Source: an uncultured Bacteroidales bacterium
GTDB taxonomy: Bacteria > Bacteroidota > Bacteroidia > Bacteroidales > Paludibacteraceae
NCBI GenBank assembly: GCA_902762355.1
Contig: CACWNR010000002.1
Location: 62,001-126,000, forward strand
Direction of reading: 5' to 3'
DNA: 64,000 nt
Position numbers and translations under genes: made by a program
Shown here: positions 13,001 through 49,567 of the stretch, in pieces
Layout of the letters: each line of letters begins with the position of its first letter
How positions within the stretch are numbered: the first letter of the stretch is position 1
Notes under the pieces: model-generated
What the model saw: the letters and a program-made list of their open reading frames with translations, nothing else
What the model was told of the DNA's origin: nothing
The model's database searches: none

Positions 13001-15937
13001 ATGACAGGTAGGCATCAGCTCTACCATCACATCATCCAGATACAGATACGCATCGCCAGTACCATAGTTACTCGTACCCGAGAAATAGATAATCGCCGTC
13101 GAACCTGTATAAGGAGCCAGACTGATCTCATAATACGTCCAGTTGGACACACTCGTCAATGCCAAACCATCCGCCAACGAAGTTTTGGTTACTCCATCAT
13201 CGGTAGAGATAAGCACATCGCCTGCACCACCGTACGGGTTCTTCCACCAGAAGGAGAGGGTCGCATCGCGCGACAGATCAATCGAAGGCGTCGCCAAAAG
13301 ATTGGTATTTCCGCTACTATTCACATAGGAGTCAAAACGCACACAGGCTCCTTCATGACCGGAAGAAGCGTAGCTCCACTTATAACTCTCCGTGGTAGTC
13401 GTACCCTCGGAGTTATCCCAGCATACAGGTATACCGCTGGTGATTGAATTGAAGTTCTGAGAGAACGCCTGTTTGGTAATCGATACCACCGAACAAGGCG
13501 TGGTAAAAGATACGTAGTCCGACCATGCCACCGCCTCAGCCTGCTCTTCGCAAATAGGATGAACATACGCATAATAGGTAGTGTTTGCAGCCAAACCGGT
13601 TATCTGCACGGTATCGTTGGTCACCGTATCGCGGAAAGCGATGACATTTGTGGTTTGCAGCGTATCCGGATTCAGACGCTTGGTAGTAACCAATACGTCA
13701 TAAGCGGGAGCACCGTTGTCCGTGAAGGTGAGTTCCGAATAAGCAGTACCCGGCGTTACCTGTACGCCTTTGACCTTCATACACTGCGGAAGCAGACTCA
13801 GCTCGATATCATCGATACAGCAGGTGGAGACACCGGATGCATACCAACGGATAACCAGATTCCTGGCTTCCGCAGGAACTTCCATCAGATCCGCTGTACG
13901 CTGTACCATTGCGCCCGAGTTGCCGTTATACGTAGCAATCGCTTGGAATGTATTCAGCTCCAGATCGCCATCGGTGATATAACCTAAGGTCAACGTACCA
14001 CTGTTCGCATCGCTCTGCATCCAGAAGGAGACACGCAGGGTTTTGAGTTCGTTCGTAAAGCCCGGTAATACGGCATAGCAGTTACCCTTACCATAGAAGG
14101 TGAGCGATTTCATACCGCTGTGGCGGTACCATTTTCTATTCTGAATCTTCGTTCCTACCGAGTCAATGACGTGCGGCAGCACGGCGTCATCCGCATATAC
14201 CTGCCAGCAATCCGGAGACACACCGTCCGTAGCACTGAATATCTTACCTTCGTACGACTCGAAGCCCTCTACAAACGGATTCTCCTCCGTGATCGTAGTG
14301 GACGGACACGGGGTCTTGAGTTGAGCCGTCAGCGAATCGCCTTCCTCACAATCCTGGCGTACCTTTACATAATAGGTAGCGCTGGTCTCCAAGCCGTTGA
14401 ATACATGCGACGATCCGGAGACAGTCTGCTGCTGCAGCACATTAGAGAAGTCCGCTACATCGGACAAGGTAACCACCGAAGCGGTCGAACCCACTTTGCT
14501 CCAAGCCAGACTGATACTATTCGATGTAACCGTCGGTTTCAATCCATAGATACCCAAGCATAAACCATCGCTCTCAACGACGCGTACCTCAGTCATATGG
14601 AAATATGAGGTAGTTGCCTGCGCATCCGCCACAAAGGCCAAACGGATAGAACCGGACTCAATGAAATCATCCAACAGGATATTGTATTGCGCACCGGTAT
14701 TTTTGAACTCTTTCCCCTCTATCGTACGAAGCAGTATCCACGACTCGCCTTCGTCTGCCGATACATAGACATGGAACTTGGAGGTAGCAGCCGTTGTACT
14801 TGCCGTAGTGGCAGTAGCCGAGTTCGTCAGCGCCAACTTGAATGACAACAGCACACTGGCATTCTCCTCCTCCGGAGCGATAGAGAGCGCCTGGGTAAGC
14901 AACCAAGAGGGCGTACCATTGCTCTGTCCGTAGATATGCGCAGTACCGAAGACTGTCGTATTGGTGGTTGCTTTCCAGTTATAGGAGGAAGTATTGTCGG
15001 TAAGACTGCTTCCCTCTACGGATGCAGCCACAGCTCCTTGCTTCTGCGACCAAGAAGAGGGGACGGATGCCAGACTCGGCGTGTATGGGATGCCGAGCGG
15101 CGTAGTGAATGTAGCGTCTACCCAATTGGTATGACCCGACTCGTTGTCATCGCAATCCGTGCGAACATACACATAATACTGCGTCTCCGGAGTCAAACCG
15201 GATATCACTTTACCTACACCGGTAATCGTACTGTCATGGAAGATAACCGTCTCATCGTCAATCTCCGAGAGGTTGTATATCGCAGAAGGCGATACCACCA
15301 GTTCAAACTGTCTGCCGGCACGAGGTGCCCAGCTGATCAACGCAGCGGTTGCCTCCGACGAGATACCCGTGATCGTAGCGTCCATACACTGCGATTGCGG
15401 ATATACGCGTACCGCATCCAGTACTACGCCGTAACCGCCGGCCTGAGTGGCCTCAAAAGCCAATTGGCAGGTAGCCGTACGACAAGCAGCCGGTAACTCT
15501 ATCGTCTGCAAAGACCAAGCGCCCTGGTAGGTATCATACTTACGTACCATGACCCACGGGTCATGATCCGAGATACGATAATAGATAGCCAGCGTATCGC
15601 AGAAAGTGCTCTGTCTCGGTTGCGCATAGGCAAACGACAGAACCGGCGCTACCATCTGGCTTAAGTCCAGGGACGGCGTCACCAAACGGACACAATAGCC
15701 GAAACTTCCGTCCAGATCACGCAAAGCCACACGGTGGTCTCCGTCATACGCACCGGCCGGATTCGTAGCGAGATCATCCAGGATCCACGCTCCACCGGCT
15801 ACGGTATTCACCACTTCCTGTGACCAATCTTCAGGGATACCCGACTCAAAACTTTCATTCAGCGTATATTGAACCGCTGAAAATCCAGAGACAGCCATAC
15901 ATATAGCTGCCAAGAGAGAGAGTAATCGATGTTTCAT
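4031..15937 (-). CDS. Giant secreted adhesin-like T9SS protein (3968 aa)
   Basis: Signal peptide at residues 1-20. The body holds about fourteen modules, each a jelly-roll/cleaved-adhesin-like domain (typical opening FE...G.P.CW) followed by a fibronectin-III-like domain ending in YYVYVR.(I/D)C(E/D). The ninth module is divergent (opens SLTINDGTSTSEYVP). Near the C-terminus come two CDG/CEGE Cys units, a GCDST unit, and a T9SS sorting domain beginning at APNPV and ending SSLLVH. No catalytic motif is visible, so a surface adhesin or matrix role is inferred from architecture alone. The start is 42 bp after the 15980-19582 gene and has no promoter of the local consensus, suggesting co-transcription with that gene. 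Two modules share a 68-bp perfectly identical DNA stretch. Terminator at 3975-4007. Confidence 0.9.
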   Translation of the reverse strand: MKHRLLSLLAAICMAVSGFSAVQYTLNESFESGIPEDWSQEVVNTVAGGAWILDDLATNPAGAYDGDHRVALRDLDGSFGYCVRLVTPSLDLSQMVAPVLSFAYAQPRQSTFCDTLAIYYRISDHDPWVMVRKYDTYQGAWSLQTIELPAACRTATCQLAFEATQAGGYGVVLDAVRVYPQSQCMDATITGISSEATAALISWAPRAGRQFELVVSPSAIYNLSEIDDETVIFHDSTITGVGKVISGLTPETQYYVYVRTDCDDNESGHTNWVDATFTTPLGIPYTPSLASVPSSWSQKQGAVAASVEGSSLTDNTSSYNWKATTNTTVFGTAHIYGQSNGTPSWLLTQALSIAPEEENASVLLSFKLALTNSATATTASTTAATSKFHVYVSADEGESWILLRTIEGKEFKNTGAQYNILLDDFIESGSIRLAFVADAQATTSYFHMTEVRVVESDGLCLGIYGLKPTVTSNSISLAWSKVGSTASVVTLSDVADFSNVLQQQTVSGSSHVFNGLETSATYYVKVRQDCEEGDSLTAQLKTPCPSTTITEENPFVEGFESYEGKIFSATDGVSPDCWQVYADDAVLPHVIDSVGTKIQNRKWYRHSGMKSLTFYGKGNCYAVLPGFTNELKTLRVSFWMQSDANSGTLTLGYITDGDLELNTFQAIATYNGNSGAMVQRTADLMEVPAEARNLVIRWYASGVSTCCIDDIELSLLPQCMKVKGVQVTPGTAYSELTFTDNGAPAYDVLVTTKRLNPDTLQTTNVIAFRDTVTNDTVQITGLAANTTYYAYVHPICEEQAEAVAWSDYVSFTTPCSVVSITKQAFSQNFNSITSGIPVCWDNSEGTTTTESYKWSYASSGHEGACVRFDSYVNSSGNTNLLATPSIDLSRDATLSFWWKNPYGGAGDVLISTDDGVTKTSLADGLALTSVSNWTYYEISLAPYTGSTAIIYFSGTSNYGTGDAYLYLDDVMVELMPTCHKMGALSLMASTAKSATLRYDPTNAPQYQVVVSTTSINPATADLSLENIVYNAVVTTSQPVITGLDGNSRYYAYVRGMCEDEDYGLWSSEFTFKTLCTAIPVENFGTETFTDPNSVDCWTFGFTTQGTQTTGAYAKRNTETSYGAYIKLSKEQVAYTKNALGVDTAYSDGAYAISPQLGLEDIREYQVTFDAATISQASDNYKRLNVGVTVDPNDRSAIQILKTIDLDYAADSMAIKSYSVSFAAAEEDYLGREIRYVIFQLKESSKHDSTNFVLIDNVSIEPVASCAQVVESRVDSIQVYGAGISWEAIASSEEYQVMLSTVNSRRPDTIATPILLDIVDTNHMIFSDLESNTQYFAYVRAICGEGDTAKWSNAVRFRTAIAIPWDEPFEAASLSNGWQSLYNKFTGDSINTSSLGRPAGDYKWSIITTGVPSDMTAPAAYGYLDDYEYGYIWLISPTVDLTGHEGEYVEMSFDAERSSSTASDAKFYVIVSEDGGLSWKKSNATTWEENGDYEFNAIPTTKTSYSIGLTKYIGKKIAIAFYMESPYGYSHIQHGLFVDNISVHTYDAICRGVQKVSVAPTASTATVKWEIEGTPTKADLEISNVATFATRLDSVSVEDAYEYTFENLEPNTTYYVRIKQSDCEDAEWKTLSFTTECLPLTQLPWSEDFESYESGDFSSDCWLNKHLEGNGTQLFKVYTSTNGDNSTHQLQLPDMRSGTKTLLGLPRFTLDEAAYQFVIDVYRNTSSYPKEGLRIFASLAADLDSTAVELAFISRNYNTADTTGVNIIPAEGASGWYTYKLDIPLEGDVRIFVQGESAYGSSTYMDNFGIRHAPVCPDVFGLAISDIHADSALVTIKDLDASGYHFVLATNAIDLNDLSVEDAAYILVNDSVYGDTVLQLAGLQVATTYYVYARTLCEDEKVGAWSAPKTFTSACGLISVIADQPWREGFENLPTGSSSSAAPMCWDLLNANQGSGSASIYVNTSSSYVHSGSKSLWFSINSSADDAFAILPEIDALNTLQIEFYYKHESTGSSGELFLGYMTDITDATSFVQIAGFTRSTSWEKAEAVLSAIPDSVIGTARLAFKYAKNSSSSSYYMGIDDIKVGIIPACLPVSDLAAQLTLGDGTVASLTWASDSVAGWRVQYATAANFANAIETTVTDTTFIALSGLTPETEYYARVKAICEDGVESEWCDAISFLPTDALSLTINDGTSTSEYVPVYGYWTDHLTVSQFVIPAADLAALQGTYLNQLTFYATEDNVSWGNAQFEVYMAGVPSTSIAALADWSVLSLVKAAGSLSIVNNQMVVLLDEPYQYDGGNLLIGFQQTTTGTYSYSHWYGQTVTDASYAGYDQSVSQRNFLPKMRIEYITSEGPLCSRPASLKVDAITSTSARLSYDKKEAPECEILMTSKALNPDTLTVDTFVVFRDTVSNDTIEFNGLLPQTPYYIYARALCEDGQASIWAATSFTTACEAVDVLPYEMDFEDETVSSIPSCWTVARSSGSASDYPYVYSSGTYAHGGTKAFAWGTSTSYSTTPATTWASLPPMEEDIKNLEMSFWYRSASSSYDCDSIVVGVMSDPLDTTTFVPVDGFYPTSTTYVQAEVDFSSYAGNGKYITFKRVLVGESYYSSLYYTPFIIDDIAVSKLPDCRLVKRLAASPVNATSATVHFVLTPSPEYDFVVTTEAIDPDTVAKVPDSLIIRYEKISNDTIELTGLTPATGYYVYVRSICEESEADWASTQFTTRCLAEIPYVQNFDDPSDVKPIYTGATISTIPSCWEEGYESTSYLTYIQSNTNTSTYAFSGTSALYLYSTATYGSYIVLPEMDAALDTLQLTFKARAMYQGSSSVTNYATSTYAHSVAIGTMTDPNDFSTFEFLETYVLQEVATTPSSAADAWEDVTIYLQAATGKYITLVTAFSKSNNVWIDDVEVSRAPNCIAPAAIKVSAATTTADVTWISKASAFEVAVGEAGFTLPNEADSIYSVADTTGLHIEGLAQSTSYDLYIRSVCDESESSDWSRVTTFTTGAKVPFVDDFEDRNQWNFINGTYTNAWAWGSAVSNGGSSAMYISNDGGTTNEYSSSLAAVYATKTFDFGEEGGYVFQYDWRAYGESTYDYLRVALAPADTKLTAGSYAVSGLSSSSLPTGWQALDGGSKLNLSSTWQTIQSDEISLKAGQYMVVFAWINDGSTLTNPPAAIDNFSIDKVQCSAPLISEITDVTDSSAVVRWDTLAPAYEIALIRGLDTVYRSVTGCDTLLLENLNSSTSYVIRMRAICDEETTSNWSAPYGFATTCAVLVVDETGWSENFDALTEGIPGCWDNSEGTTTTESYKWSYASSGHDGACVQFNSYSNSSGNTNYLATPELLLTKDMQLTFWWKNAAGGAGEVLISTDGGTTKTSLLNNPTNVTEWTEYELDLSDYTGSTVIIYFKGTSNYGYGDAYLNLDDVSIAPLPDCRAVKNLELSNITAEGVTLNFSFADGQLHDAQVAISRESAFDPQTAMVLDTISDSTYTFQVALQDKVTYYVYVRQDCGEEEVSAWKSISFVTPYVLRYDAEFTSTTLPDEWSRYSGKLNDVLAGTAALNTATSGWSLVSANTAIDDYHFKGNIYGTSFAYWVVSPLVSLAAPEDKAVMLHFDAAYNKYNNVDTDPAVGEDDRFVVLVSTNNGASWQIVKEWNNDGTGDYVLSEVPKEGKTYHVVLNDFIGQTVRVAFYGESTVSNADNDFHFGHISMNYSIEETYQSVICDGNDYVGADEGNTFYITPEEYHVGDNVYNKYIPAVNNRADSLITLYLTVMGTETFEDSVVLCEGEHFSQVIHGGTFDFDAYVGMQDQARFVTSEYGCRDVVKLKVTVIPSIEAHVYDSVARGETYMWHGKGYISATTATFDTVSLVTGCDSTAVLHLSVYDAPEEAIHSVYAQSLLIAPNPVKAGEPIRVLTDFAAEELAEARIEIVSSTGAIVYVQQGADAPCTLPGIPVSGMYIVRITVRDKIYISSLLVH
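6003..6070. repeat. 68-bp internal direct repeat, copy 1
   Basis: Identical base for base to 13353-13420. Both encode the same part of a jelly-roll module (around CWDNSEGTTTTESYKW) in the giant adhesin. Confidence 0.9.
13353..13420. repeat. 68-bp internal direct repeat, copy 2
   Basis: Second copy of 6003-6070, 7350 bp away and in frame within the same gene. The surrounding module sequence is similar but no longer identical, so identity is concentrated here. Confidence 0.9.
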
Positions 15938-19796: not shown

Positions 19797-22700
19797 TTAT
19801 TGAATCTTCACACCCATGATGGTGAACTTCTCACCGTTGCGAATGATAACCACCTGGTCGTTCTCAATGCGCTTGATAGCTACGTTCTCGATACCAGCGC
19901 CACTGAGTCCGGTCGGATCATGCGGCTTCTCTACGATGAGCAAGGTATAGTCCTCGTAGATAGTGTAGCCACCTGTGCCGCACGGATCCGGATCAGCAGA
20001 AGAAGTTCCATTAATATAGCCATTGAAGAAACTGTCTGCACCACCGATACGCAGACGGTAAGCACCTAACTCGGTCTCAGCCGGAATGGTGAATACGCAG
20101 CTCAGTGTGGTCGGTTGGCTCTCCGAAGATTCACCACTGAATACAACCTCGGAAGCCTCGAACGCCAGGTTCTTGTTCCAGTCTACCCAGATAACCGTAC
20201 CGTAGGTATAACCCGTACTATACGTGATCAGGATCGAATCAATCCCATCTGCATGAGCTACAAACTCAATAGCCTTGTTATCTGCATAGAACGGAGCTGC
20301 TGTCGGATGGATGTCGGTATAAGCATCTTCCTCGTTGAATGCGATAGCAATAATACCACTACCGTCTATCGATGTCGGAGCCGGAACGCAGTAACCTACA
20401 TGAGCAGAAACCATACGGAAGTCGCTGTGATCACTCTCGCCGCAGTATGCGCGTACGTAGAAGTCGTAATCGTTGTCGATATTCAGCGTGTCGATCGTAA
20501 TCGTCAGCGCCTCAATCGGCTCAACGCCCTCCCAGTTCGGCTCTTCGCCGGAGAGTACACATACTACCTGGAAGAATGTCTCTTCGCCACCTGCCGTCCA
20601 GTCTAACTTAACGGAGTTAGCAGAGAGTACTTCTGCATCCAGACTTGCCGGCTTGATACAAGACGGGGTAGTTGTAAAGAATACGGACTCACTCCACTCT
20701 GTCGGATCCACACCGCAGACGCCTTGTGCCTGAGCCTCGTACTTCGTCTCAGCTGTAAGGCCTTCGATGGTCAACTCTTTTACGAGAGAATTACCACCTT
20801 CTTGCCACTCGCCGGCAGGAGTTGCAGCACCCAAGAGTACAATGTCATCAATGTAGAGATAGTATGCATTATCCGAAGTACACTTGATACTGATGTACTT
20901 GGTACCCTCAGGAACCGTAACACTATATTGATGCCACTGTTGATCGTCAGCCGTTACTTCCGCTTCGAATGCAAACGAAGAAGTTGCATTGTCGGTAGAA
21001 CTGAAACCAACCTCGAATGATTCTGCATAAGAAGATGAGTAATTCTTATAGTAGAATTCCAGCGTAGCATCGGCATCAATACCGGCGATTTCAGGAGAAA
21101 TCAAGTACTGCGGAGGAAGAGTAGTATAGTTGAAACGGAAGCCGTTCGAGCCGGTGTGAGCGGCGGAGCTGTTGATTCCTGTAGAAGACTGAGCATTGCT
21201 CGTAGTCCAGCCACCTATACCGTCCTCAAAGCCTTGCTCTAAGAGTACATTGTCCAAAGCTGCCGTTCTGTAACGAACATTATAGCTGTCGTTGGCGCCT
21301 ACGTTCCATGCAATCTTAGCCGAGCGTGCCGCAATTTCCGAAACGCTTAATTCGCCCGGAACAGGACAGTTAGCCAAGGTCGAGAAACTGATGCTGCTTG
21401 TCCATGCGCTATTGCCATCGGCACCGCAGTTATCACGAACCCATACATAATAGGTCGTCTCTGCCTCAAGACCCGCAAAAGCATACTCAGCCTCTGCGAT
21501 ATTGCTGATGAGGCTGTCACCTTCCGGAGCCTCCGGCAACTCGTTGATCTTGCTATAGAACAACTCGAAGCCTTCGTGCAACTCATTCTCTGCAGCTACC
21601 CAAGTTACGATAGCTGCATCGCTTGCCAACGAAGCAACGTCTACAGCCAGACCGCTCGGTGCAATATTGCCGGCGATGGTAGTGAAGGTCGCTTTGTTTG
21701 TGCTCCAATAGCTTACGCTTTCCTCACCGCATTTTGCACGTACATATGCATAGTAGGTCTTATTAGCCAACAGACCATCAATGATAGCAGGATTAGACGT
21801 TACGTTATAGATGTTTGCCACGTTGGTCACCGTATCCGGGTTGAAGGCGGCAATCGTATCTACTACGATCTGCCATTCGTTCTGACCCTCTTCGCCGTTC
21901 GTCCAGCTCAACGTAGCCGTGTGAGCGGTCTTGGCATCACATTTCGGAGCAGCAGGTTTCAGACAGGTTGGAACCAAGCCTACGAAGACATCATCAATAC
22001 TCAAGTAATAGTTGTCATACGTACCTCCTTCATACTTGAAAGCGATACGGCTACCGGCAGGTGCATCCGCAAAGAGAACATCCTTCTCTGTCAGAGCGCT
22101 TGTTTGCGGGCAATCGAGAACAGAAACGAAGGTGCTTGCATCTGCAGGGTCAGTCATATATCCTACATGCAACGTACCATTAGAAGCACCTGTTCCTTCA
22201 TTGCGATAGGTGAAGGTGAGCTGCAGCGCAGAGATATTCTCAGCAAACTCCGGTAAGATTGTGTACAACGGCGTGGTCTTGCTCGACTTGAAGAACAAGC
22301 AATTGCCGGATACTGCATAACCACTATTGGAACTGATGAATACCTGCGGATAGCTGCTCGAAGATGCAGCACGATTCAAGAACTGCCAACAGGTCGGAAG
22401 TTGGTCATCCGGATAACCGGCAGGAACAGACGCACTGGTAGAACCGGTATATCCATTGAAGTCTTCTTTCCAACCGGAAGCTGCAGAAACAGCCTCACAC
22501 TCAGTGGCGAAGATTGTGGAAATAGCGGCACTCTGCGAGAATTCGTTGTAGTACGAACGAATGTATACTACATAACTGCTACTTGCCGTAAGCTCATCCA
22601 GTGCAACCGAGGTAACATTCTCTACAAGAACTGCTTTTTTCCAATCGGCAGCAGAGCCGGCAGGCAGTACTACGTATTGATACTTCGTAATCGCCTCATC

Positions 22701-25700
22701 AGCCGCAGCTGTCCAAGAGAGAGTAGCCGTGGTCGTAGTGATGTCCTCTACTTGCGGAGCCGTCGGAGCCTTGCAGAACGCTGCGAAGGATTTCTTCACA
22801 GAAGCACTTCTGTCTTCTTCTCCACAGTAAGCACGTACGTAGAAGTCATAGTTGACACCGGAAGCCTTGCCGCTGATCGTAACGGTGAAGATGTTCGCAT
22901 CCAGCAGCGTCCAGGCCTCTACCTCTGCGTCTTTCGCAACGCAAGCGTACTCGAATTGATTCTCAGCGCCACCTGCGGTCCAAGAGAACGTTGCACCATC
23001 CGGGAGGATAACCGGTTCCGCTACCACCGGAGCCATACAAGACGGAATGGTGGTGAAGAATACAGACTCTTCGCTCCACTCGGTCGGGTTAGTACCGCAG
23101 ACACCTTGTACCTTAGCCTCATACTTCGTCTCCGGCTCAAGACCGCTGATGGTCAACTCTTTTACGAGAGAATTACCACCATCTTGCCACTCGCCGGCAG
23201 GCGTAGGAGCACCGAAGAGCACAATGTCATCAATGTAGAGATAGTACTTATCATAAGAAGTACACATGATGCAGATGTATTTCGTACCGGCAGGAACGGT
23301 AGCACTGTATTTGTGCCACTGCTGATCACTAGCCGTTACCTCATCACCAAATGCAAACGAGGAAGTAGTTTTATCTGTAGAACTGAAACCAACTTTGAAT
23401 GTTTCCTCATATGTAGATGATTCATTATTGTAGTAGAACTCCAACGATGCATCAGCATCAAGACCGGCGATTTCCGAAGAAATCAAGTACTGATTAGAAT
23501 AAGCCCAAGAGAATGTGAAGCCACTCGCACCGGAGTGAATGCCATTGGTAGAACTGCTGATTCCGGTACTGGACGCAGGATTGCTTGTAGTCCAGCCACC
23601 CATACCATCCTCAAAGCCTTGCTCTAAGAACGCATTGTCCAAAGCAGCCGTTCTATAACGAACATTGTAGCTATCGTTGGTACCTACGTTCCATGCGATC
23701 TTAGCCGAGTGTGCCGCAACTTCCGAAGCGCTCAATTCGCCCGGAACAGGACAGTTAGCCAATGTCGTGAAGCTGAAGCTTACCCAAGCGCTATAGCCAT
23801 CGGCACCGCAGTTATCACGAACCCATACATAATAGGTCGTCTCAGCGTCCAAACCGGAGAGTACCTTGAAGGTATCCGCAATGTTCGTAAAGAGGCTATC
23901 GCCTTCCGGAATCTCCGGCAACTCGTTGATCTTGCTATAGAACAAATCGAAGCTTGCGTGCAGATCATTCTTTGCAGACACCCAAGTAACGGTAGCTGCA
24001 TCGCTTGCCAACGAAGCACCGTCAACCGCCAAACCGCTCGGCACGATATTACCGGCGATAGTCGTGAAGGTTACTTTCTTCTTGCTCCATGCGCTAAAGC
24101 CATCCTCACCGCAGTTTGCGCGTACGTATGCATAGTAGGTCTTATTAGCCAACAGACCATCAATGATAGCAGGATTAGACGCTACGTCAATGATTCTTGC
24201 TGCATTAACCGTATCCGGGTTGAAGGCGGCAATCGTATCGACTACAATCTGCCATGCATTCTGGCCCTCTGCACCGTTCGCCCAGCTCAACGTAGCCGTA
24301 TGAGCGGTCTTAGCGTCACATTTCGGATCAGCCGGCTTCTGACAAGTCGGAATCGGACCGACTACTACATCATCAATACTCAAGTAATAGTTGTTAGACG
24401 AACCTCCTTCATACTTGAATGCGATATAGCTACCGGCAGGCGCGTCCGCAAAGAGCACTTCTTGCTCCGTAAGCGTAGTTGTCTGCTCACAGGTATGAAC
24501 AGAAACGAAGGTGCTTGCATCAGCAGGATCAGTCAAATATCCTACATACAACGTACCATTAGAAGAACCTGTTCCTTCATTGCGATAGGTGAAGGTGAGC
24601 TGCAGCGCAGAGATATTCTCAGCAAACTCCGGTAAGATAGCATACAACGGCGTGGTACTGCTGGACTTGAAGAACAAGCAGTTACCGCTTACTGCATAGC
24701 CACTATTGGAACTGATGAATACCTGCGGATAGATATTCGTCGTTGTCGCACGATTCAAGAACTGCCAACAGGTCGGAAGTTGGTCATCCGGATAACCGGC
24801 AGGAACAGACGCACTGGTAGAACCTGTATATCCGTTGAAGTTCTCATTCAAAGCCGAAACGGCATCACACTCGGTTTGGAAACTAATGCCACCCACCCAC
24901 GGGCTTTGGTCACTATCGCCACAATGTGCGCGCACCCATATATAGTAAGTAGAAGAGGGGTTCAAACCACTCTGAATCTCCTTATCGGAGGTTCCCTCGA
25001 TAGAAGGAATAGTCTCTGCGGTCGGAGCTACATTCTCGGTCGAGTAATAGATATCCCAAGCTATTTCAGAATCACCAGCCGTCCATGTAAAGGTAGCAGA
25101 AGTCGTTGTTGCAGAGGCGAAAGCCAAGCCACTCGGCTCCAAGCATGACGGAACATCCTCTACAACGATATCGTCGATGTAAGCACCGTTGTATGTTCTG
25201 CTTGATGTAGCCGCATCAATCATAATGGCGATATAATTACCTTCGCCGGTTAAGTTGATGGTGAACTTCTGGTAAGAAGTCGTCAGTGCGATTTCTTCAC
25301 CAATCTGAACAAAGGTAGAAGCATCTGCGGGATCAGTCATTCTACCAATCTTTATGGTGCTACTTTCATTATAACCACGTGCCCAGAAAACAATACGCTT
25401 ATTCGTTTCAAAATTCATGACCGGCATGATCGCATACTGCGGCTGCGGATCATAACTACTACTCCAACTGCTGTAATAAGAATAGAACCTTAAGCTATTG
25501 TTTGGAGAATGCGAATAATCGGTATACGAATTATAATACATTGTCGGATACCACTTGTAATCTGAAGAAGTAGATGTGTTAATTGCACTCCAACAAACAG
25601 GAAGGACTCGTGCAGTTGGTGTATATACCGAAGCTATATCAAAACTATCGAAGTTCTCACTCAAAGCCGAAACAGCTTCGCACTTGGTTTGGAAACTAAT

Positions 25701-27326
25701 GCCACCAATCCAGTCGCTACGATCAGTTTCATTACAATGCGCACGTACCCATACGTAATAAGTAGAAGAGGGGTTCAAACCACTCTGAATCTCCTTATCG
25801 GAGGTTCCCTCGATAGAAGGAACAGTCTCTGCGGTCGGAGCTACATTCTCGGTAGAATAGTAGATATCCCATGCGATCTCACCACTCTCGCCGGCTTCCC
25901 AGTTCAAGATAGCAGAATTCGTTTCTGAAGATACGAAAGCCAAACCGCTCGGTTTCAGACAAGCGGGGAGTTCACGAACTACCAAGTTGTCGAAGTTCGT
26001 TGATGCTCCATATTCGCTCACGCCTAAGATGAAGATACGACCTTCTCCACTGATCGGCAACGTGAAGTTGTACGTATACCAGCCATCGGCAGCTTCAGCT
26101 GCAATACCGTCCGCAGTATTGGCTACTTGGCGCTCACGAGGAATAAAGCCTAACAGCACTGTATCTGCTAACTGAGAGGTAGGACTAACATAAATTCGTA
26201 AACCTTCGTTATTCTTCATGGTAGAATAATATTTACGATATACGTCAATCACAAACTCGTACCCATCAGGGAAAGTCATTACAGGCAGTGACAACAACGT
26301 CTTGTTACCCGAACTCATATCCGGCAATTGAACATACTTTGTGCTATTGCCACCGAGCGCTGTGGTTTCTACCTTGAACACAGAGGTACTACTACCTGCT
26401 ATATGCTCGTTCTCCCAGCAAGTAATATCAAGATCGCCAGCTTCTCGTTCGTCGAAGTTCTCACTCCAACCGGAAGCGACAGAAACAGCTACACACTTAG
26501 TTTTGAAACTAAACGTAGAGCTCCACTCGCTATAATCCTCGCCTCCGCAGAATGCGCGAACGCGAACATAATAGGTAGTACCCGGAGTCAGATCTTCCAA
26601 CAGTCCTGCTTCGCCTTCAATAGCAGAGGGCGCTTGCGGATCGGTGAAATCTTCACTTGTTGAATACTCCAAGTCATAACTCTCTGCACCAGCAACAGGA
26701 TCCCACACAATTAATGCCTCAGTCGGGTCTGCATCACCATCCAAGGCCAGATTTTTCGGTCTCGGGCAGGCATCCTCTTTTATAGAAACACCCGTTACAT
26801 CATCCAAGTAGAGAGAGGAGCCATCGTTGTCTACTACGTGGAAAGCAACATAGATTTCTTGACCTGCGTAGGCACTCAGATCAATCACTTTCTCCACCCA
26901 GCTACTGGCAGAAGTGGTTCCAATCGTTCCACTCGAACCGGTGGTGTACGTTTCCAGCGTGGTTGTAAACGATGCAGCCTCAGCCGTTGTCGTTGAAACC
27001 TCAATGGTCAGCGTTGTTCCTGCATAACTCTGTGAAGCAACATAAAAGGACAAACTCTCGCCATCTGCCGGTAGAAGTTTCGGCGTAACGAGGTAATTCT
27101 CGTGTCCTGGCGAAGAAGCATAATTCACATAAGCACATGCAGCTCCCTCGTGATGGTACGAAGAATTACGTTCCCAACTCTTGCTACCGGAAATATGGAT
27201 AGACTTCCATCCATCCGGAGCAAATGTTGCATCCTCAAAGCCTTCATTCAGTTGTTCTGCTCTAAGAGTAAACGGCAAACATAGCATCGCCGTTAAGAGC
27301 AAGAAAAGAGAACAAATCTTTTTCAT
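19797..27326 (-). CDS. Giant secreted adhesin-like protein with internal duplication (2509 aa)
   Basis: Signal peptide MKKICSLFLLLTAMLCLPF (cleavage near residue 23). About seven jelly-roll/cleaved-adhesin-like domains alternate with fibronectin-III-like domains (endings such as YYVWVRAHC). Residues about 825-1520 recur at about 1618-2315 with a constant offset of 793 residues (2379 bp): two near-copies separated by one extra fibronectin-III domain. Near the C-terminus is a GEVED-like domain (WVDWNKNLAF, about 2350-2370). The last 35 residues lack the usual long T9SS sorting domain and instead carry a compact tail (VVIIRNGEKFTIMGVKIQ) like those of the two BspA-like proteins here. No enzyme motif is visible; a surface adhesive role is inferred. 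Own promoter at 27446-27476 and own terminator. Confidence 0.9.
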   Translation of the reverse strand: MKKICSLFLLLTAMLCLPFTLRAEQLNEGFEDATFAPDGWKSIHISGSKSWERNSSYHHEGAACAYVNYASSPGHENYLVTPKLLPADGESLSFYVASQSYAGTTLTIEVSTTTAEAASFTTTLETYTTGSSGTIGTTSASSWVEKVIDLSAYAGQEIYVAFHVVDNDGSSLYLDDVTGVSIKEDACPRPKNLALDGDADPTEALIVWDPVAGAESYDLEYSTSEDFTDPQAPSAIEGEAGLLEDLTPGTTYYVRVRAFCGGEDYSEWSSTFSFKTKCVAVSVASGWSENFDEREAGDLDITCWENEHIAGSSTSVFKVETTALGGNSTKYVQLPDMSSGNKTLLSLPVMTFPDGYEFVIDVYRKYYSTMKNNEGLRIYVSPTSQLADTVLLGFIPRERQVANTADGIAAEAADGWYTYNFTLPISGEGRIFILGVSEYGASTNFDNLVVRELPACLKPSGLAFVSSETNSAILNWEAGESGEIAWDIYYSTENVAPTAETVPSIEGTSDKEIQSGLNPSSTYYVWVRAHCNETDRSDWIGGISFQTKCEAVSALSENFDSFDIASVYTPTARVLPVCWSAINTSTSSDYKWYPTMYYNSYTDYSHSPNNSLRFYSYYSSWSSSYDPQPQYAIMPVMNFETNKRIVFWARGYNESSTIKIGRMTDPADASTFVQIGEEIALTTSYQKFTINLTGEGNYIAIMIDAATSSRTYNGAYIDDIVVEDVPSCLEPSGLAFASATTTSATFTWTAGDSEIAWDIYYSTENVAPTAETIPSIEGTSDKEIQSGLNPSSTYYIWVRAHCGDSDQSPWVGGISFQTECDAVSALNENFNGYTGSTSASVPAGYPDDQLPTCWQFLNRATTTNIYPQVFISSNSGYAVSGNCLFFKSSSTTPLYAILPEFAENISALQLTFTYRNEGTGSSNGTLYVGYLTDPADASTFVSVHTCEQTTTLTEQEVLFADAPAGSYIAFKYEGGSSNNYYLSIDDVVVGPIPTCQKPADPKCDAKTAHTATLSWANGAEGQNAWQIVVDTIAAFNPDTVNAARIIDVASNPAIIDGLLANKTYYAYVRANCGEDGFSAWSKKKVTFTTIAGNIVPSGLAVDGASLASDAATVTWVSAKNDLHASFDLFYSKINELPEIPEGDSLFTNIADTFKVLSGLDAETTYYVWVRDNCGADGYSAWVSFSFTTLANCPVPGELSASEVAAHSAKIAWNVGTNDSYNVRYRTAALDNAFLEQGFEDGMGGWTTSNPASSTGISSSTNGIHSGASGFTFSWAYSNQYLISSEIAGLDADASLEFYYNNESSTYEETFKVGFSSTDKTTSSFAFGDEVTASDQQWHKYSATVPAGTKYICIMCTSYDKYYLYIDDIVLFGAPTPAGEWQDGGNSLVKELTISGLEPETKYEAKVQGVCGTNPTEWSEESVFFTTIPSCMAPVVAEPVILPDGATFSWTAGGAENQFEYACVAKDAEVEAWTLLDANIFTVTISGKASGVNYDFYVRAYCGEEDRSASVKKSFAAFCKAPTAPQVEDITTTTATLSWTAAADEAITKYQYVVLPAGSAADWKKAVLVENVTSVALDELTASSSYVVYIRSYYNEFSQSAAISTIFATECEAVSAASGWKEDFNGYTGSTSASVPAGYPDDQLPTCWQFLNRAASSSSYPQVFISSNSGYAVSGNCLFFKSSKTTPLYTILPEFAENISALQLTFTYRNEGTGASNGTLHVGYMTDPADASTFVSVLDCPQTSALTEKDVLFADAPAGSRIAFKYEGGTYDNYYLSIDDVFVGLVPTCLKPAAPKCDAKTAHTATLSWTNGEEGQNEWQIVVDTIAAFNPDTVTNVANIYNVTSNPAIIDGLLANKTYYAYVRAKCGEESVSYWSTNKATFTTIAGNIAPSGLAVDVASLASDAAIVTWVAAENELHEGFELFYSKINELPEAPEGDSLISNIAEAEYAFAGLEAETTYYVWVRDNCGADGNSAWTSSISFSTLANCPVPGELSVSEIAARSAKIAWNVGANDSYNVRYRTAALDNVLLEQGFEDGIGGWTTSNAQSSTGINSSAAHTGSNGFRFNYTTLPPQYLISPEIAGIDADATLEFYYKNYSSSYAESFEVGFSSTDNATSSFAFEAEVTADDQQWHQYSVTVPEGTKYISIKCTSDNAYYLYIDDIVLLGAATPAGEWQEGGNSLVKELTIEGLTAETKYEAQAQGVCGVDPTEWSESVFFTTTPSCIKPASLDAEVLSANSVKLDWTAGGEETFFQVVCVLSGEEPNWEGVEPIEALTITIDTLNIDNDYDFYVRAYCGESDHSDFRMVSAHVGYCVPAPTSIDGSGIIAIAFNEEDAYTDIHPTAAPFYADNKAIEFVAHADGIDSILITYSTGYTYGTVIWVDWNKNLAFEASEVVFSGESSESQPTTLSCVFTIPAETELGAYRLRIGGADSFFNGYINGTSSADPDPCGTGGYTIYEDYTLLIVEKPHDPTGLSGAGIENVAIKRIENDQVVIIRNGEKFTIMGVKIQ
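20390..22471. repeat. Internal duplication, copy B
   Basis: Coding segment nearly the same as copy A (about 22770-24850) at a fixed 2379-bp offset. Shared landmarks in order: NGYTGSTSASV, KCDAKTAHTATLSW, YSKINELPE, RTAALDN, SLVKEL. Boundaries are approximate. Confidence 0.8.
22770..24850. repeat. Internal duplication, copy A
   Basis: Partner of copy B (20390-22471). A single fibronectin-III domain (about 22480-22770) separates them. Boundaries are approximate. Confidence 0.8.
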
Positions 27327-29715: not shown

Positions 29716-29768
29716 ATTTTTATTAAAATTTTTTGCTATTTTACGCATATTTCGGCAATTTTTACTAT

Positions 29769-30043
29769 TTCGGACGCCGCCTTCCTTCGGAATTCCCCCG
29801 AAATTACGTTCGCGTCCTGCGGTACATATACCTCATAACGAGCTCTTTTTTCTGCATATTACTCCTTCCGTCGTGTATGATTATAGACAGCCTTCGCGTC
29901 AGCGGGATAGCATGTACTCTCTCGGGGGCCTGTTTTGACGAAGGGGTACGTCAAAACTCGTAGGCAGGGGGCCGGTACCCCGAAGAGTAGCATGCGCTAT
30001 CCGCATGTTCTAAGGCTGTCTATAATCGCGGTGTAGACACCGC
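29769..30043 (+). other. Composite hairpin element, copy 1 (possible structured RNA or mobile element)
   Basis: Fills most of the 506-bp gap between gldJ and folP. Left part: CGGACGCCGCC (29771-29781) and the core ATTCCCCCGAAA-T-TACGTTCGC (29792-29813). Right part: a long hairpin whose outer 15-bp stem (29879-29893 with 30013-30027) is perfect, with nested inner pairings (GCGGGATAG/CTATCCGC, then TCGGGG/CCCCGA, then TTTTGACG/CGTCAAAA). It is followed without a gap by a second hairpin, GCGGTG/CACCGC (30028-30043). Copy 2 lies at 41860-42200 on the other strand with the same order of parts. No long open frame. Nature unknown: structured RNA and hairpin mobile element are both possible. Confidence 0.6.
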
Positions 30044-30067
30044 CTTGCAAAAAAAAGTGCTCAAAAC

Positions 30068-30098
30068 TTGCATATGTGCAATTTTTGTAGTAACTTTG
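30068..30098 (+). promoter_or_regulatory. Promoter for folP-cdaA
   Basis: TTG (30068-30070), 20 nt, TAACTTTG (30091-30098); leader about 20 nt to ATG 30125. Confidence 0.78.
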
Positions 30099-40572: not shown

Positions 40573-41712
40573 TTAAAATAATTCGCCACTCCAAAGCATT
40601 TTGAGGAAATCAAAAAGATAAATCACTTCGATGTTACCTACGCGACGCGTGATCGGATCGCGGGACACGACGATACAACGACTACTCGGAAACTCTTCAC
40701 CATACTCTTTAAAATTACTCATATGCTTGCTTTGCACCTCTTCGGTTGATTTGATCTCGATACCGATTTCAGCATCTCCAATAACGGCATCTACTTCTTT
40801 TCCATTATAGGTATGCCAATAACTCAGTTTTTTGCGGTTATGCGAATAACCTATATACGCTATCAGTTCTTGTATCACGAAGTGCTCAAAGCAATGTCCG
40901 TATTCCGATGTACCGGGAGCCAAAGATGTACGGTTTAGCAGATGGTTATAGACTCCCACGTCGAAGTAATAGAACTTCGGTGCTTGTACCACCTTGCGTT
41001 TTACGACCTTCGTATAGGCAGGAATAGTGTAGCCGATTAATGTATCTGCTAAAATAGAAAAGTATTCCTTCACTGTCTTGGCTGAGACTTGACAATCATT
41101 GGCGATTTTTTCGTAGTTCACGATGTCTCCGTCGCAGGTGGCCGCCACTTCCATAAATCGCTCGAAAGCGTCTAAATTGCGCACCAGCGACTCCTCTTTG
41201 ATCTCTTCGCGCAGATAGACGTCAATATATCCGTCCAAAAGTCGTTCCGGCTTCTTTGCCAAATAATGAGGCGGCAATAGACCATACAACAAGGCCTTGT
41301 CCAAATCCAAGTCCGCTATCTCGGCACTGACAAAAGGATAGAAATAACATGGAAGAGCTCTCCCACCTAAGGTATTATGCCCCTTTCGTTTGAGCTTGCG
41401 TGCACTACTTCCGCATAACACAAACCGCAATCCTTTCTTCTGGATAAGACGATGTACCTCATTCAATAACTCCGGCACGAAGGGAATCTCATCTATCACC
41501 ACAATACTGCCTTCCGGCTTATCTTGCAGCATCTCATACAGCAATTCAGGCTTCGCGCTAAAACGACGTCGCAACTTGGCATCCAACAAGTCGATATACA
41601 CGGCATCAGGAAACTGCGCCTCAAGGAACGTACTTTTGCCTGTCTGACGCGCACCGAACAGGAATACACTTCCATCTAACTCGTTGTTTAACTGACAAAT
41701 ACGATTAATCAT
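40573..41712 (-). CDS. AAA-type ATPase with DUF4143 domain
   Basis: 379 residues from ATG 41712; a TTG 27 bp upstream lies in a repeat and is less likely. The P-loop GARQTGKST is at about residues 20-28, Walker B SIVVIDEIPFV near 75, and sensor-type FVLCGSSARK. The C-terminal half (FMEVAATCDGDIVNYEKIA, VKEYFSILADTLIGY, WHTYNGKEVDAVI, IGIEIKST) is DUF4143, which pairs a winged-helix-like part with a PD-(D/E)xK-like nuclease fold; the E..D..E.K pattern is visible (FEHFVIQEL, KEVDAVI, IGIEIKS). The role of this common family is unsettled. The leader (41713-41805) carries a tandem 32-nt repeat that may be regulatory. A second family member is at 52325-53509. Confidence 0.85.
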   Translation of the reverse strand: MINRICQLNNELDGSVFLFGARQTGKSTFLEAQFPDAVYIDLLDAKLRRRFSAKPELLYEMLQDKPEGSIVVIDEIPFVPELLNEVHRLIQKKGLRFVLCGSSARKLKRKGHNTLGGRALPCYFYPFVSAEIADLDLDKALLYGLLPPHYLAKKPERLLDGYIDVYLREEIKEESLVRNLDAFERFMEVAATCDGDIVNYEKIANDCQVSAKTVKEYFSILADTLIGYTIPAYTKVVKRKVVQAPKFYYFDVGVYNHLLNRTSLAPGTSEYGHCFEHFVIQELIAYIGYSHNRKKLSYWHTYNGKEVDAVIGDAEIGIEIKSTEEVQSKHMSNFKEYGEEFPSSRCIVVSRDPITRRVGNIEVIYLFDFLKMLWSGELF

Positions 41713-41727
41713 ATTATATGTTTTGCA

Positions 41728-41791
41728 ATAAAAATCCAAAGTTCTACTCCTGATATTTCATAAAAATCCGAAGTACTACTTCCGATATTTC
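41728..41791. repeat. Tandem 32-nt repeat in the ATPase leader
   Basis: Two copies (41728-41759 and 41760-41791) differing at a few bases, plus a partial third towards 41803. Each holds an interrupted palindrome GAAGT/ACTTC (minus strand). It lies between promoter and start codon, so an operator or RNA-level switch is possible. Confidence 0.75.
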
Positions 41792-41805: not shown

Positions 41806-41836
41806 CAAAGATACTACAAAAATTGCATATATGCAA
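41806..41836 (-). promoter_or_regulatory. Promoter for the ATPase/dehydrogenase pair
   Basis: Minus-strand TTG (41834-41836), 20 nt, TATCTTTG (41806-41813). Confidence 0.75.
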
Positions 41837-41859
41837 GTTTTTGTGTATTTTTTTGACGG

Positions 41860-42200
41860 GCGAAATATAATTTCGCGATTGTTAAAGAGCCTAAGGCCAT
41901 TCGGATAGGTGTGTTCGTGTATGCAACTCTTCAGGGACAACTCACCCCCTGTTCGACGACTCTCGCGTTCCCCATCCGCTCGAGACGGTCCCTAAAGAGT
42001 TCATACACTCACAGGGGAAGAAGGGAACATACCTATACGTCGGGGACGAGGCTCTTTAATAATCACACAGCTGAGTGTAACGAAGCGGACGGCAAAAAAT
42101 GCACCCCTTGCATATATCCCGCAGGATGCGAACGTATTTTCGGGGGAATTGGTGAGCGAGGAGAGAAACGACGAGCGAACCAAGGCGGCGTCCGAAGGTA
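41860..42200 (-). other. Composite hairpin element, copy 2 (possible structured RNA or mobile element)
   Basis: Minus-strand counterpart of 29769-30043, filling most of the 41713-42340 gap. It begins with a promoter-like TTG (42221-42223), 20 nt, TACCTTCG (42193-42200), then CGGACGCCGCC and the core ATTCCCCCGAAA-A-TACGTTCGC. It continues to a long hairpin with outer stem 42049-42064 / 41877-41892 (15 of 16 paired) and inner stems ATAGGTATGTTC/GAACACACCTAT and GTGTATGAACTC/GAGTTGCATACAC. A second perfect 7-bp hairpin (41860-41876) adjoins the outer stem exactly as in copy 1. Stem sequences differ from copy 1 but pairing is kept. No long frame. Confidence 0.6.
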
Positions 42201-49188: not shown

Positions 49189-49567
49189 TGTTAGTATTGT
49201 TTGTTCACAAAGTGTATAAATAAGCTTCATTATCTGACAAAAATGCGTATTTACGCAAAAATATCACATAAATTCTTGCGTATTCCAAATATTTGTTGTA
49301 CCTTCGGACGCCGCCTGCCTTTGGCATTCCCCCGAAAGTACGTTCGCACGTTTGTGCGCTGAAAGTACAAAATATTTGTAGTTACGGCTCTCATATGGAA
49401 ATACTGAATACAATTTTGACCAGTCCAAGGACGGTAATTACACCTCAATGGTTAACGCTGATTGCCGGAACACAGGCATAACCCTTCCTCTCCGGATTCG
49501 CACTTGCGCAACTGAAGCTTATTTATCACAATATGTCAAAGAGCATTCAGCTTTTCAGCTTTTGTAA

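What the first reader, a model, noticed from the sequence alone, without database searches (positions are those of the whole stretch)
29769..30043. Composite intergenic element with covarying stems, two full copies
Copy 1 (29769-30043, plus) and copy 2 (41860-42200, minus) share CGGACGCCGCC, the 22-nt core ATTCCCCCGAAA-N-TACGTTCGC and CCTGCGG, then about 60 nt later a long hairpin opening TGATTAT and closing AATCGCG. The outer stem reads GATTATAGACAGCCT in copy 1 and GATTATTAAAGAGCCT in copy 2, each matched by its own complement. A second hairpin abuts the outer stem with no spacer in both (GCGGTG/CACCGC against GCGAAAT/ATTTCGC). Different sequence with kept pairing is compensatory change. That points to a structured RNA or a hairpin-driven mobile element; I know of no described family with this layout.
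Basis: partly seen in the sequence, partly recalled or inferred. Interest (0 to 1): 0.75.

Follow-up and report, generated by a model that had tools for sequence, protein, structure and literature searches.

The report
Promoter-nesting hairpin DNA element
A small non-coding, mobile-looking DNA repeat, found so far almost only in one genus of Bacteroidales bacteria, sits inside the -7 box of gene promoters, brings a replacement promoter along, and may recognise that box by base-pairing, so it could spread without silencing the gene it lands on.

Summary
The window holds three copies (29766-30098 +, 41806-42200 -, and a truncated one at 49299-49362 +). A covariance model matches 30 of 41 genomes of the genus, with one weak match among 118 other Bacteroidales genomes and one among 58 same-family genomes of other genera. 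Filled and empty orthologous sites show that the element interrupts the -7 box of a native promoter, TAnnTT|TG, and ends in its own -33 box, spacer and TAnnTT. 89 of 92 evaluable held-out copies have this right-end -7 box (9.0 in shuffles), 80 with a -33 TTG (0.8). Stem mismatches are A.C rather than G.T on the gene-sense strand (186:84 held out), so the folded strand is the antisense one. That argues against a sense structured RNA and for single-stranded DNA. Two bases in hairpin A are complementary to the right -7 box more often than chance (38 of 101, expected 16.4). A repeat on two further genomes was weak (7 of 24, expected 4.0, p = 0.078). This resembles IS608 guide pairing, but no transposase was found. 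Verdict: new variant of a non-autonomous mobile repeat.

The parts
29727..29770 (+). Left flank of copy 1: remnant of the native folP promoter, ending in TATTT, to which the element's CGG is joined (start chosen by eye)
   Evidence: Side-by-side reading with the empty sites L081, L083-L085 and the filled site L082
29769..29802 (+). Copy 1 hairpin A (TTCGG 29769-29773 with CCGAA 29798-29802) with a short tip hairpin
   Evidence: over the family: tip helix has both-side changes in all 4 pairs, 91.5% of cells paired
29801..29807 (+). Copy 1 guide-like segment AAATTAC, complementary in form to GTAnnTT of the -7 box
   Evidence: Statistics over the family; weak repeat
29808..29827 (+). Copy 1 hairpin B region (GTTCGC...)
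29879..30027 (+). Copy 1 long inner hairpin (arms 29879-29894 and 30012-30027)
30028..30043 (+). Copy 1 abutting hairpin GCGGTG/CACCGC
30068..30098 (+). Copy 1 right-end replacement promoter: -33 TTG 30068-30070, -7 box TAACTTTG 30091-30098; the element ends within TAACTT
   Evidence: promoter consensus from passages of PMC7366714
30125..30865 (+). folP-type gene (pterin-binding enzyme) downstream of the right end of copy 1
   Evidence: Pfam PF00809, E 2.3e-51
41806..42200 (-). Copy 2, whole element from the left TAnnTTCGG to the right-end -7 box TATCTTTG
41877..42064 (-). Copy 2 long inner hairpin
40573..41739 (-). AAA_14/DUF4143 ATPase gene downstream of copy 2
49299..49362 (+). Copy 3, left module only; no intact right-end -7 box found
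   Evidence: (listed incomplete)

Best explanation
A non-autonomous, protein-less mobile DNA repeat confined, or nearly so, to one genus of Bacteroidales. Shown by comparison: it lies inside the -7 box (TAnnTTTG) of native promoters, left junction TAnnTT|CGG, right junction TAnnTT|TG, and its right end supplies a new -33 box, spacer and TAnnTT that rebuild a promoter for the downstream gene. Shown statistically: its hairpins are kept on the strand antisense to that gene. Supported but less securely: a segment GTAnnTT at the 5' foot of hairpin A on that strand is complementary to the -7 box at the right junction, with wobble pairs of the same strand. Inferred: the antisense strand acts as single-stranded DNA, and an HUH/Y1-type transposase acting in trans (as proposed for REPs, and as in IS200/IS605) cuts and joins at sites chosen by this guide. 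Because the guide encodes the -7 box, insertion lands in promoters and is nearly neutral.
For: Empty and filled orthologous sites at folP, lepA (three filled species), tyrS and an MBL-fold gene. 51 distinct copies parsed as complete with both junctions (the criterion of the parse; 7 further entries incomplete, two of them one copy). In 96 held-out copies found by the left module alone, 4 run into a contig or locus end; of the other 92, 89 have a right-end -7 box (shuffled stretches 9.0, reverse complement 21) and 80 have it with a -33 TTG (shuffled 0.8, reverse complement 5). Left flanks keep a TTG at -33 spacing in 43 of 95 (14.3 expected) and 22 of 51 (7.5 expected). Copies in one genome nearly identical between the junctions with unrelated flanks: L304/L305, and L278-L280 apart from the hairpin A tip. 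A copy nested in the right-end promoter of another: L343. Strand: A.C 84 vs G.T 26 in training, composition expects 1.0; 186 vs 84 in 86 held-out elements, 51 elements one way and 7 the other; terminator-like control of 18 hairpins 0 vs 13, the opposite, as for RNA; the antisense strand folds more stably in 136 of 139 with DNA energies. Guide: nn equal in 38 of 101, 16.4 expected when permuted inside right-end clusters, reached by 0 of 5000 permutations; of 202 single bases 125 match, 23 are antisense-strand wobbles, 2 sense-strand wobbles, 52 neither.
Against: No transposase is linked. In 52 fetched RAYT/Y1 loci (not all RAYT matches were fetched) the model has one weak match, L225, 20.7 bits. 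RAYT-like genes are in 22 of 30 element-bearing and 7 of 11 element-free genomes; G003 (16 element matches, 96% complete) has none at E 1e-8 or as Y1_Tnp at E 0.001. The right end was sought only within 420 nt, so a long autonomous version would appear only among the 3 copies without a right end. The guide repeat in two further genomes is weak: 7 of 24, expected 4.0, p = 0.078; first base 15, p = 0.023; second base 11, p = 0.11. The guide-left match is weak (14 of 95 equal, 9.9 expected). Two guide classes (GC with CC, AA with AT) repeatedly break complementarity at one base. About half of the left flanks have no -33 TTG. In the pair count, the number of pairs with both-side changes is not above shuffles (8 vs 7.3, 222 of 500). 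G-rich loops on the antisense strand may add to its stability. Copies share ancestry, so p-values overstate. Selection for insertions that leave a working promoter could mimic targeting.
Confidence: 0.6

Rival explanations
1. Sense structured RNA: a 5' leader or riboswitch transcribed from the left promoter and read into the gene.
For: The left flank often holds a promoter-like TTG; many elements precede housekeeping genes; stems covary.
Against: Stem mismatches are mostly A.C rather than G.T on this strand, whereas terminator-like hairpins show the opposite; the gene's own promoter lies downstream of the structure; the downstream genes are of many kinds; no Rfam match.
Confidence: 0.06
2. A cis-acting DNA switch kept for regulation: under supercoiling the antisense strand folds upstream of the promoter and the guide pairs with the template-strand -7 box, changing promoter opening.
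For: Guide complementarity is best to the right-hand -7 box; the element usually lies just upstream of a promoter.
Against: Presence is sporadic between related species at the same gene; some copies are truncated; nothing here shows regulation. It does not exclude mobility.
Confidence: 0.15
3. Copying by homologous recombination or template switching between the many near-identical promoter sequences, without any dedicated transposase.
For: The ends are promoter-consensus direct repeats; short remnants that look like internal deletions abut copies (L044, L078, L262, L321, L327, L328); no enzyme found.
Against: The shared homology is only about 12 nt; it does not explain the antisense-strand hairpins or the guide match.
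Confidence: 0.15
4. An antisense RNA guide, for instance made from a circular form, directs insertion (bridge-RNA-like).
For: The folded strand is antisense and G.U pairs would fit RNA equally well.
Against: IS110 transposases are in only 10 of 41 genus genomes and in none of G003, G032 and G034, which have 16, 16 and 23 element matches; no consistent antisense promoter seen by eye (no program run).
Confidence: 0.06

Closest known systems
IS200/IS605 family elements (IS608) and their non-autonomous derivatives (PATEs; name recalled, listing only)
   Same: Hairpins acting on one DNA strand and a guide at the 5' foot of a hairpin that pairs with cleavage and target sites (IS608 passages of PMC5934647).
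   Different: No tnpA linked; the site is a sigma-factor -7 box rather than a free tetranucleotide; three hairpins; the end carries a complete replacement promoter.
REP elements with RAYT transposases
   Same: Short palindromic repeats, transposase expected in trans; RAYT-like genes occur in the genus.
   Different: REPs lie predominantly downstream of coding regions (abstract of PMC3733652); here nearly all evaluable copies lie upstream, ending in a promoter; no co-occurrence with RAYTs.
Correia/NEMIS and similar bacterial MITEs
   Same: Small, non-coding, can carry putative promoter sites (passages of PMC2229807).
   Different: Those mostly have terminal inverted repeats, TA at the termini and target site duplications; here no terminal inverted repeats are seen and the junction splits a -7 box.
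Site-specific elements that rebuild the gene they enter, such as tRNA-integrating elements (recalled, not searched)
   Same: The end of the element restores the interrupted site.
   Different: Here the restored site is a promoter box present at many genes, not one tRNA gene.

Membership tests
IS200/IS605 or PATE | Linked or recognisable Y1 (TnpA) transposase | tested here: not met
   Y1_Tnp matches in 16 of 41 genomes, none of the 22 fetched loci with the core pattern; one weak model match in 52 RAYT/Y1 loci
IS200/IS605 or PATE | Hairpins kept on one strand only | tested here: met
   A.C:G.T asymmetry and folding energies
IS200/IS605 or PATE | Guide 5' of the hairpin complementary to the cleavage/target site | tested here: inconclusive
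   38 of 101 vs 16.4 expected; weak in the extra 24
IS200/IS605 or PATE | Insertion 3' of a short fixed target, retained in one flank | tested here: inconclusive
   Left and right nn agree in 33 of 93, 16.8 expected, so a short duplication is possible; but two spacer positions agree in excess as well (z 3.8 and 3.0)
REP/RAYT | GT[AG]G foot and RAYT gene flanked by the repeats | tested here: not met
   No clear element at the fetched RAYT loci; GTAG is not constant in left flanks
DDE MITE (Correia-like) | Terminal inverted repeats at both ends | tested here: not met
   The left end (CGG/CGA...) and right end (promoter) are unrelated by inspection
IS110 / bridge RNA | IS110 transposase in the host | tested here: not met
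   10 of 41 genomes; the window's own genome has one, the three genomes richest in elements have none
Rfam RNA families | Match at gathering score | tested here: not met
   window copies only
Mobile element in general | Actual movement or excised form | not testable with these tools
   Only comparative evidence

The most novel reading that the evidence does not exclude
A single-stranded DNA element that homes to promoters because its hairpin guide is complementary to the sigma -7 box, with the two free guide bases tuning which promoters are entered, and that repairs each promoter it splits: a natural, guide-programmable promoter-homing transposon.
Probability: 0.35. Interest if true: 0.85.

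Novelty: new variant of a known kind. Interest (0 to 1): 0.68.

Why it matters
If true, a mobile repeat has found a way to live in a compact genome by entering essential control sites and restoring them. It would give a natural example of DNA-guided insertion directed at promoters, explain how many housekeeping genes of one genus gained paired promoters, and offer a small system in which target choice can be tested by changing two bases of a harmless repeat.

Tried and rejected
Sense RNA or riboswitch: rejected on mismatch direction. Known RNA family: none for the window copies. Phage or plasmid origin: no match in phages, plasmids or IMG/VR; the IMG/VR scan used one exact core pattern, the BLAST searches copy 1 only. 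RAYT as mobiliser: no adjacency in the fetched loci and no co-occurrence. IS110. An antisense promoter over hairpin B was considered by eye only and is not consistent between copies. Template-copy origin of the guide from the left flank: the left match is weaker than the right, so not favoured. A first script for the long hairpin had too strict a pattern and was replaced. The first A.C/G.T count (138 vs 55) included hairpins A and B and was replaced by the stricter. The first guide test used all copies and was replaced with copies of like flanks removed (147 to 119; 101 usable). In one search I entered 32 of the 33 model matches (one of 13.3 bits left out), of which 24 had both guide and right box.

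Full report
Observation. The core pattern occurs three times in the window and in none of 100 shuffles. The third copy, at 49299-49362, is truncated on the right. The long hairpin pairs 16/16 and 15/16 with different sequences; ten of 27 rows (counted by eye) carry this design with other sequences, each followed directly by a second perfect or near-perfect hairpin. So the claim of compensatory change holds. One isolated partial copy of the inner hairpin lies elsewhere in the genome (G000:C6:44941-45022).

Spread. The core pattern with up to 2 mismatches was found in 21 of 61 genomes, all of the window's genus. A covariance model of the left module built from 51 copies matches 30 of 41 genomes of the genus, 218 matches at E up to 0.1 by summing the table; the sources of most of the 51 copies are among them. 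Outside the genus it gives one weak match in 118 other genomes of the order (L269 shows no right-end promoter) and one in 58 other-genus genomes of the family (L397 is a partial left module). All three searches used the stricter filters. The nearest named folP relatives are uncultured Bacteroidales MAGs and one Paludibacteraceae MAG whose title names goat reticulum.

Anatomy. Reading along the gene direction: TAnnTT, then CGG (or CGA) opening hairpin A, which has an inner tip hairpin and closes CCGAA (or TCGAA); nn; TAC; hairpin B (GTTCGCAC, four bases, GTGCGAAC or close); a variable hairpin C whose 3' foot contains or abuts TTG; an AT-rich spacer; TAnnTT; then TG and the gene's own start region. 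The long hairpin and its abutting partner of the finding are extra modules inside hairpin C. On alignment A1 the named pairs form standard pairs in 82.7% of cells (shuffles 75.2, slid versions at most 48.1) and the covariation score is 0.192 (shuffles 0.088, 0 of 500 as high); but the number of pairs with both-side changes (8, shuffles 7.3) and of further pair types (27, shuffles 23.4) is not clearly raised, and the structure was read from these same sequences. TTTG at -33 and TAnnTTTG at -7 is the main promoter consensus described for Bacteroides (passages of PMC7366714), so the element ends in a promoter.

Insertion in a -7 box. At folP the window and L082 have the element, while L081, L083, L084 and L085 have a plain promoter. 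The left flank of the filled sites is the start of that promoter up to its -7 box, and the right end rejoins it inside the -7 box. At lepA three species are filled (L119, L129, L141), with relatives empty; at tyrS L150 is filled; at an MBL-fold gene L179 and L204 are filled (part of the tyrS listing was cut). 51 distinct copies were parsed as complete, having both junctions being the criterion, and 7 entries were incomplete, two of them the same copy. The fair test is the held-out set: 96 copies found by the left module alone. 4 end at a contig or locus end; 89 of the other 92 have the right-end -7 box, against 9.0 in shuffled stretches and 21 in the reverse complement of the same stretches; 80 have it with a TTG at the right spacing, against 0.8 and 5. 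The distance from the left TA to the end of this box is 82 to 410 nt, median 165. A same-strand ORF of at least 80 codons starts within 220 nt in 80 of 89 held-out copies; in 45 training copies with 700 nt on both sides this holds for 44 on the gene side and 26 on the left side pointing away. Two copies, L034 and L038, stand before tRNA genes. In the left flank a TTG at promoter spacing is kept in 43 of 95 held-out and 22 of 51 training copies, against 14.3 and 7.5 in shuffled flanks: the interrupted promoter is often still visible. The downstream proteins are of many kinds, many of them housekeeping by my reading of their sequences (Pfam only for the window's genes).

Mobility. In one genome, L304 and L305 are nearly identical from the left TTCG to the right -7 box, with unrelated flanks; L278-L280 behave the same way apart from the tip of hairpin A. 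L343 shows a copy inserted in the right-end -7 box of another copy. Short remnants, a few bases of the left end joined to the last bases of a right end, stand directly before copies at L044, L078, L262, L321, L327 and L328, as if earlier copies had been deleted and the site entered again. These are comparative signs only; no movement was seen.

Which strand folds. In stems kept by selection on an RNA or on one DNA strand, G.U or G.T mismatches are tolerated on that strand. Scoring G.T and A.C mismatches alike, and leaving out hairpins A and B, the sense-strand letters give 84 A.C and 26 G.T in the 51 training elements with a composition-expected ratio of 1.00, and 186 A.C and 84 G.T in 86 held-out elements, 51 elements one way and 7 the other (its base composition would give about 1.13). 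Terminator-like hairpins as a control give 0 A.C and 13 G.T (18 hairpins only). A.C on the sense strand is G.T on the antisense strand, so the antisense strand is the folded one. It is also predicted to fold more stably in 136 of 139 elements with DNA energies and 130 of 139 with RNA energies; for the part after hairpin B alone, 125 and 119 of 139; G-rich loops on that strand may contribute. This speaks against a leader RNA and for single-stranded DNA, or for an antisense RNA, for which I saw no consistent promoter by eye.

A guide to the -7 box. The two free bases in CCGAAnnTAC were compared with the two free bases of the -7 boxes on each side, after removing copies of like flanks. The right-hand box equals the complement in 38 of 110 copies, 12.7 expected, and in 38 of 101 when permuted only inside clusters of like right ends, 16.4 expected, 0 of 5000 permutations as high. 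Of 202 single bases there, 125 match, 23 are wobbles of the antisense strand, 2 of the sense strand and 52 neither. The left box matches weakly (14 of 95, 9.9 expected; first base 46, 33.1 expected). Left and right boxes agree with each other in 33 of 93, 16.8 expected, but two spacer positions 12 and 13 nt upstream agree in excess as well, so this is not proof of a target duplication. A repeat on copies from two genomes not used before gave the same direction but little strength: 7 of 24 against 4.0, p = 0.078; first base 15 of 24, p = 0.023; second base 11 of 24, p = 0.11; wobbles 4 to 1. There, three copies with guide AA sit at CC or CT boxes (L371, L373, L375). I therefore treat the guide as likely, not shown. 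The geometry on the antisense strand, guide, hairpin, site, is that described for IS608, where a tetranucleotide guide 5' to the base of the hairpin pairs with the cleavage site and can be changed to redirect insertion (passages of PMC5934647).

Enzyme. No parsed copy contains a gene, but the right end was sought only within 420 nt of the left module. RAYT-type proteins are common in the genus (29 of 41 genomes with the window genome's own RAYT as query). Elements were not seen at the fetched RAYT/Y1 loci (22 by pattern; 52 by model with one weak match, L225; these are the best loci, not all matches). RAYTs do not follow elements: 22 of 30 element-bearing and 7 of 11 element-free genomes have one. 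IS110 transposases do not follow them either. The mobiliser is unknown.

Comparison with the literature. Searches of the held library for palindrome-associated elements (4 papers), for miniature inverted-repeat with Bacteroidales and promoter (1), for RAYTs with Bacteroidetes (3), for elements inserting in promoters (231, 15 listed), for repeat elements with Bacteroidetes and Paludibacter terms (127, 12 listed) and for single-stranded transposition with promoter terms (32, 10 listed) returned, among the listed titles and abstract starts, none that describes such an element. I saw passages of PMC7366714, PMC2229807, PMC6006769 and PMC5934647 and the abstract of PMC3733652. The library lacks most subscription journals, so this is not proof of absence in print.

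Verdict. A real, nearly genus-restricted family of non-autonomous, hairpin-rich DNA repeats that sits inside promoter -7 boxes and rebuilds them. I am confident of the placement and replacement promoter (about 0.9), fairly confident of antisense-strand folding (about 0.75), moderately of the guide (about 0.55), and uncertain about the enzyme class (about 0.35 for Y1/HUH).

Noticed in passing
G000:C2:45927-47084 (outside the window; L102/L209): A 386-aa RAYT-like protein with only weak Y1_Tnp similarity; related proteins vary greatly in number between species of the genus.
   Followed up: partly
L002:1501-1582 (G000:C6:44941-45022): An isolated copy of the inner part of the long hairpin, 91% identical to copy 1, without the left module or the right-end promoter.
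   Followed up: no
L020 around 1430-1640 (G000:C3:130220): Two direct repeats of a TTCGGACTCCGCC...CCCCGAA-like stretch next to what looks by eye like a serine tRNA gene; perhaps a recombined left module.
   Followed up: no
L390 (G207:C24) and L393 (G207:C40): Clusters of two or three left modules in a row with short right-end remnants, a different arrangement from other species.
   Followed up: no
lepA upstream regions L119, L129, L141: Three species carry different element subtypes in the promoter of the same gene, lepA; repeated entry or exchange of copies.
   Followed up: partly
window 4031-15937 (-) and 19797-27326 (-): Very long reading frames of 3968 and 2509 aa in the same window; not examined.
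   Followed up: no
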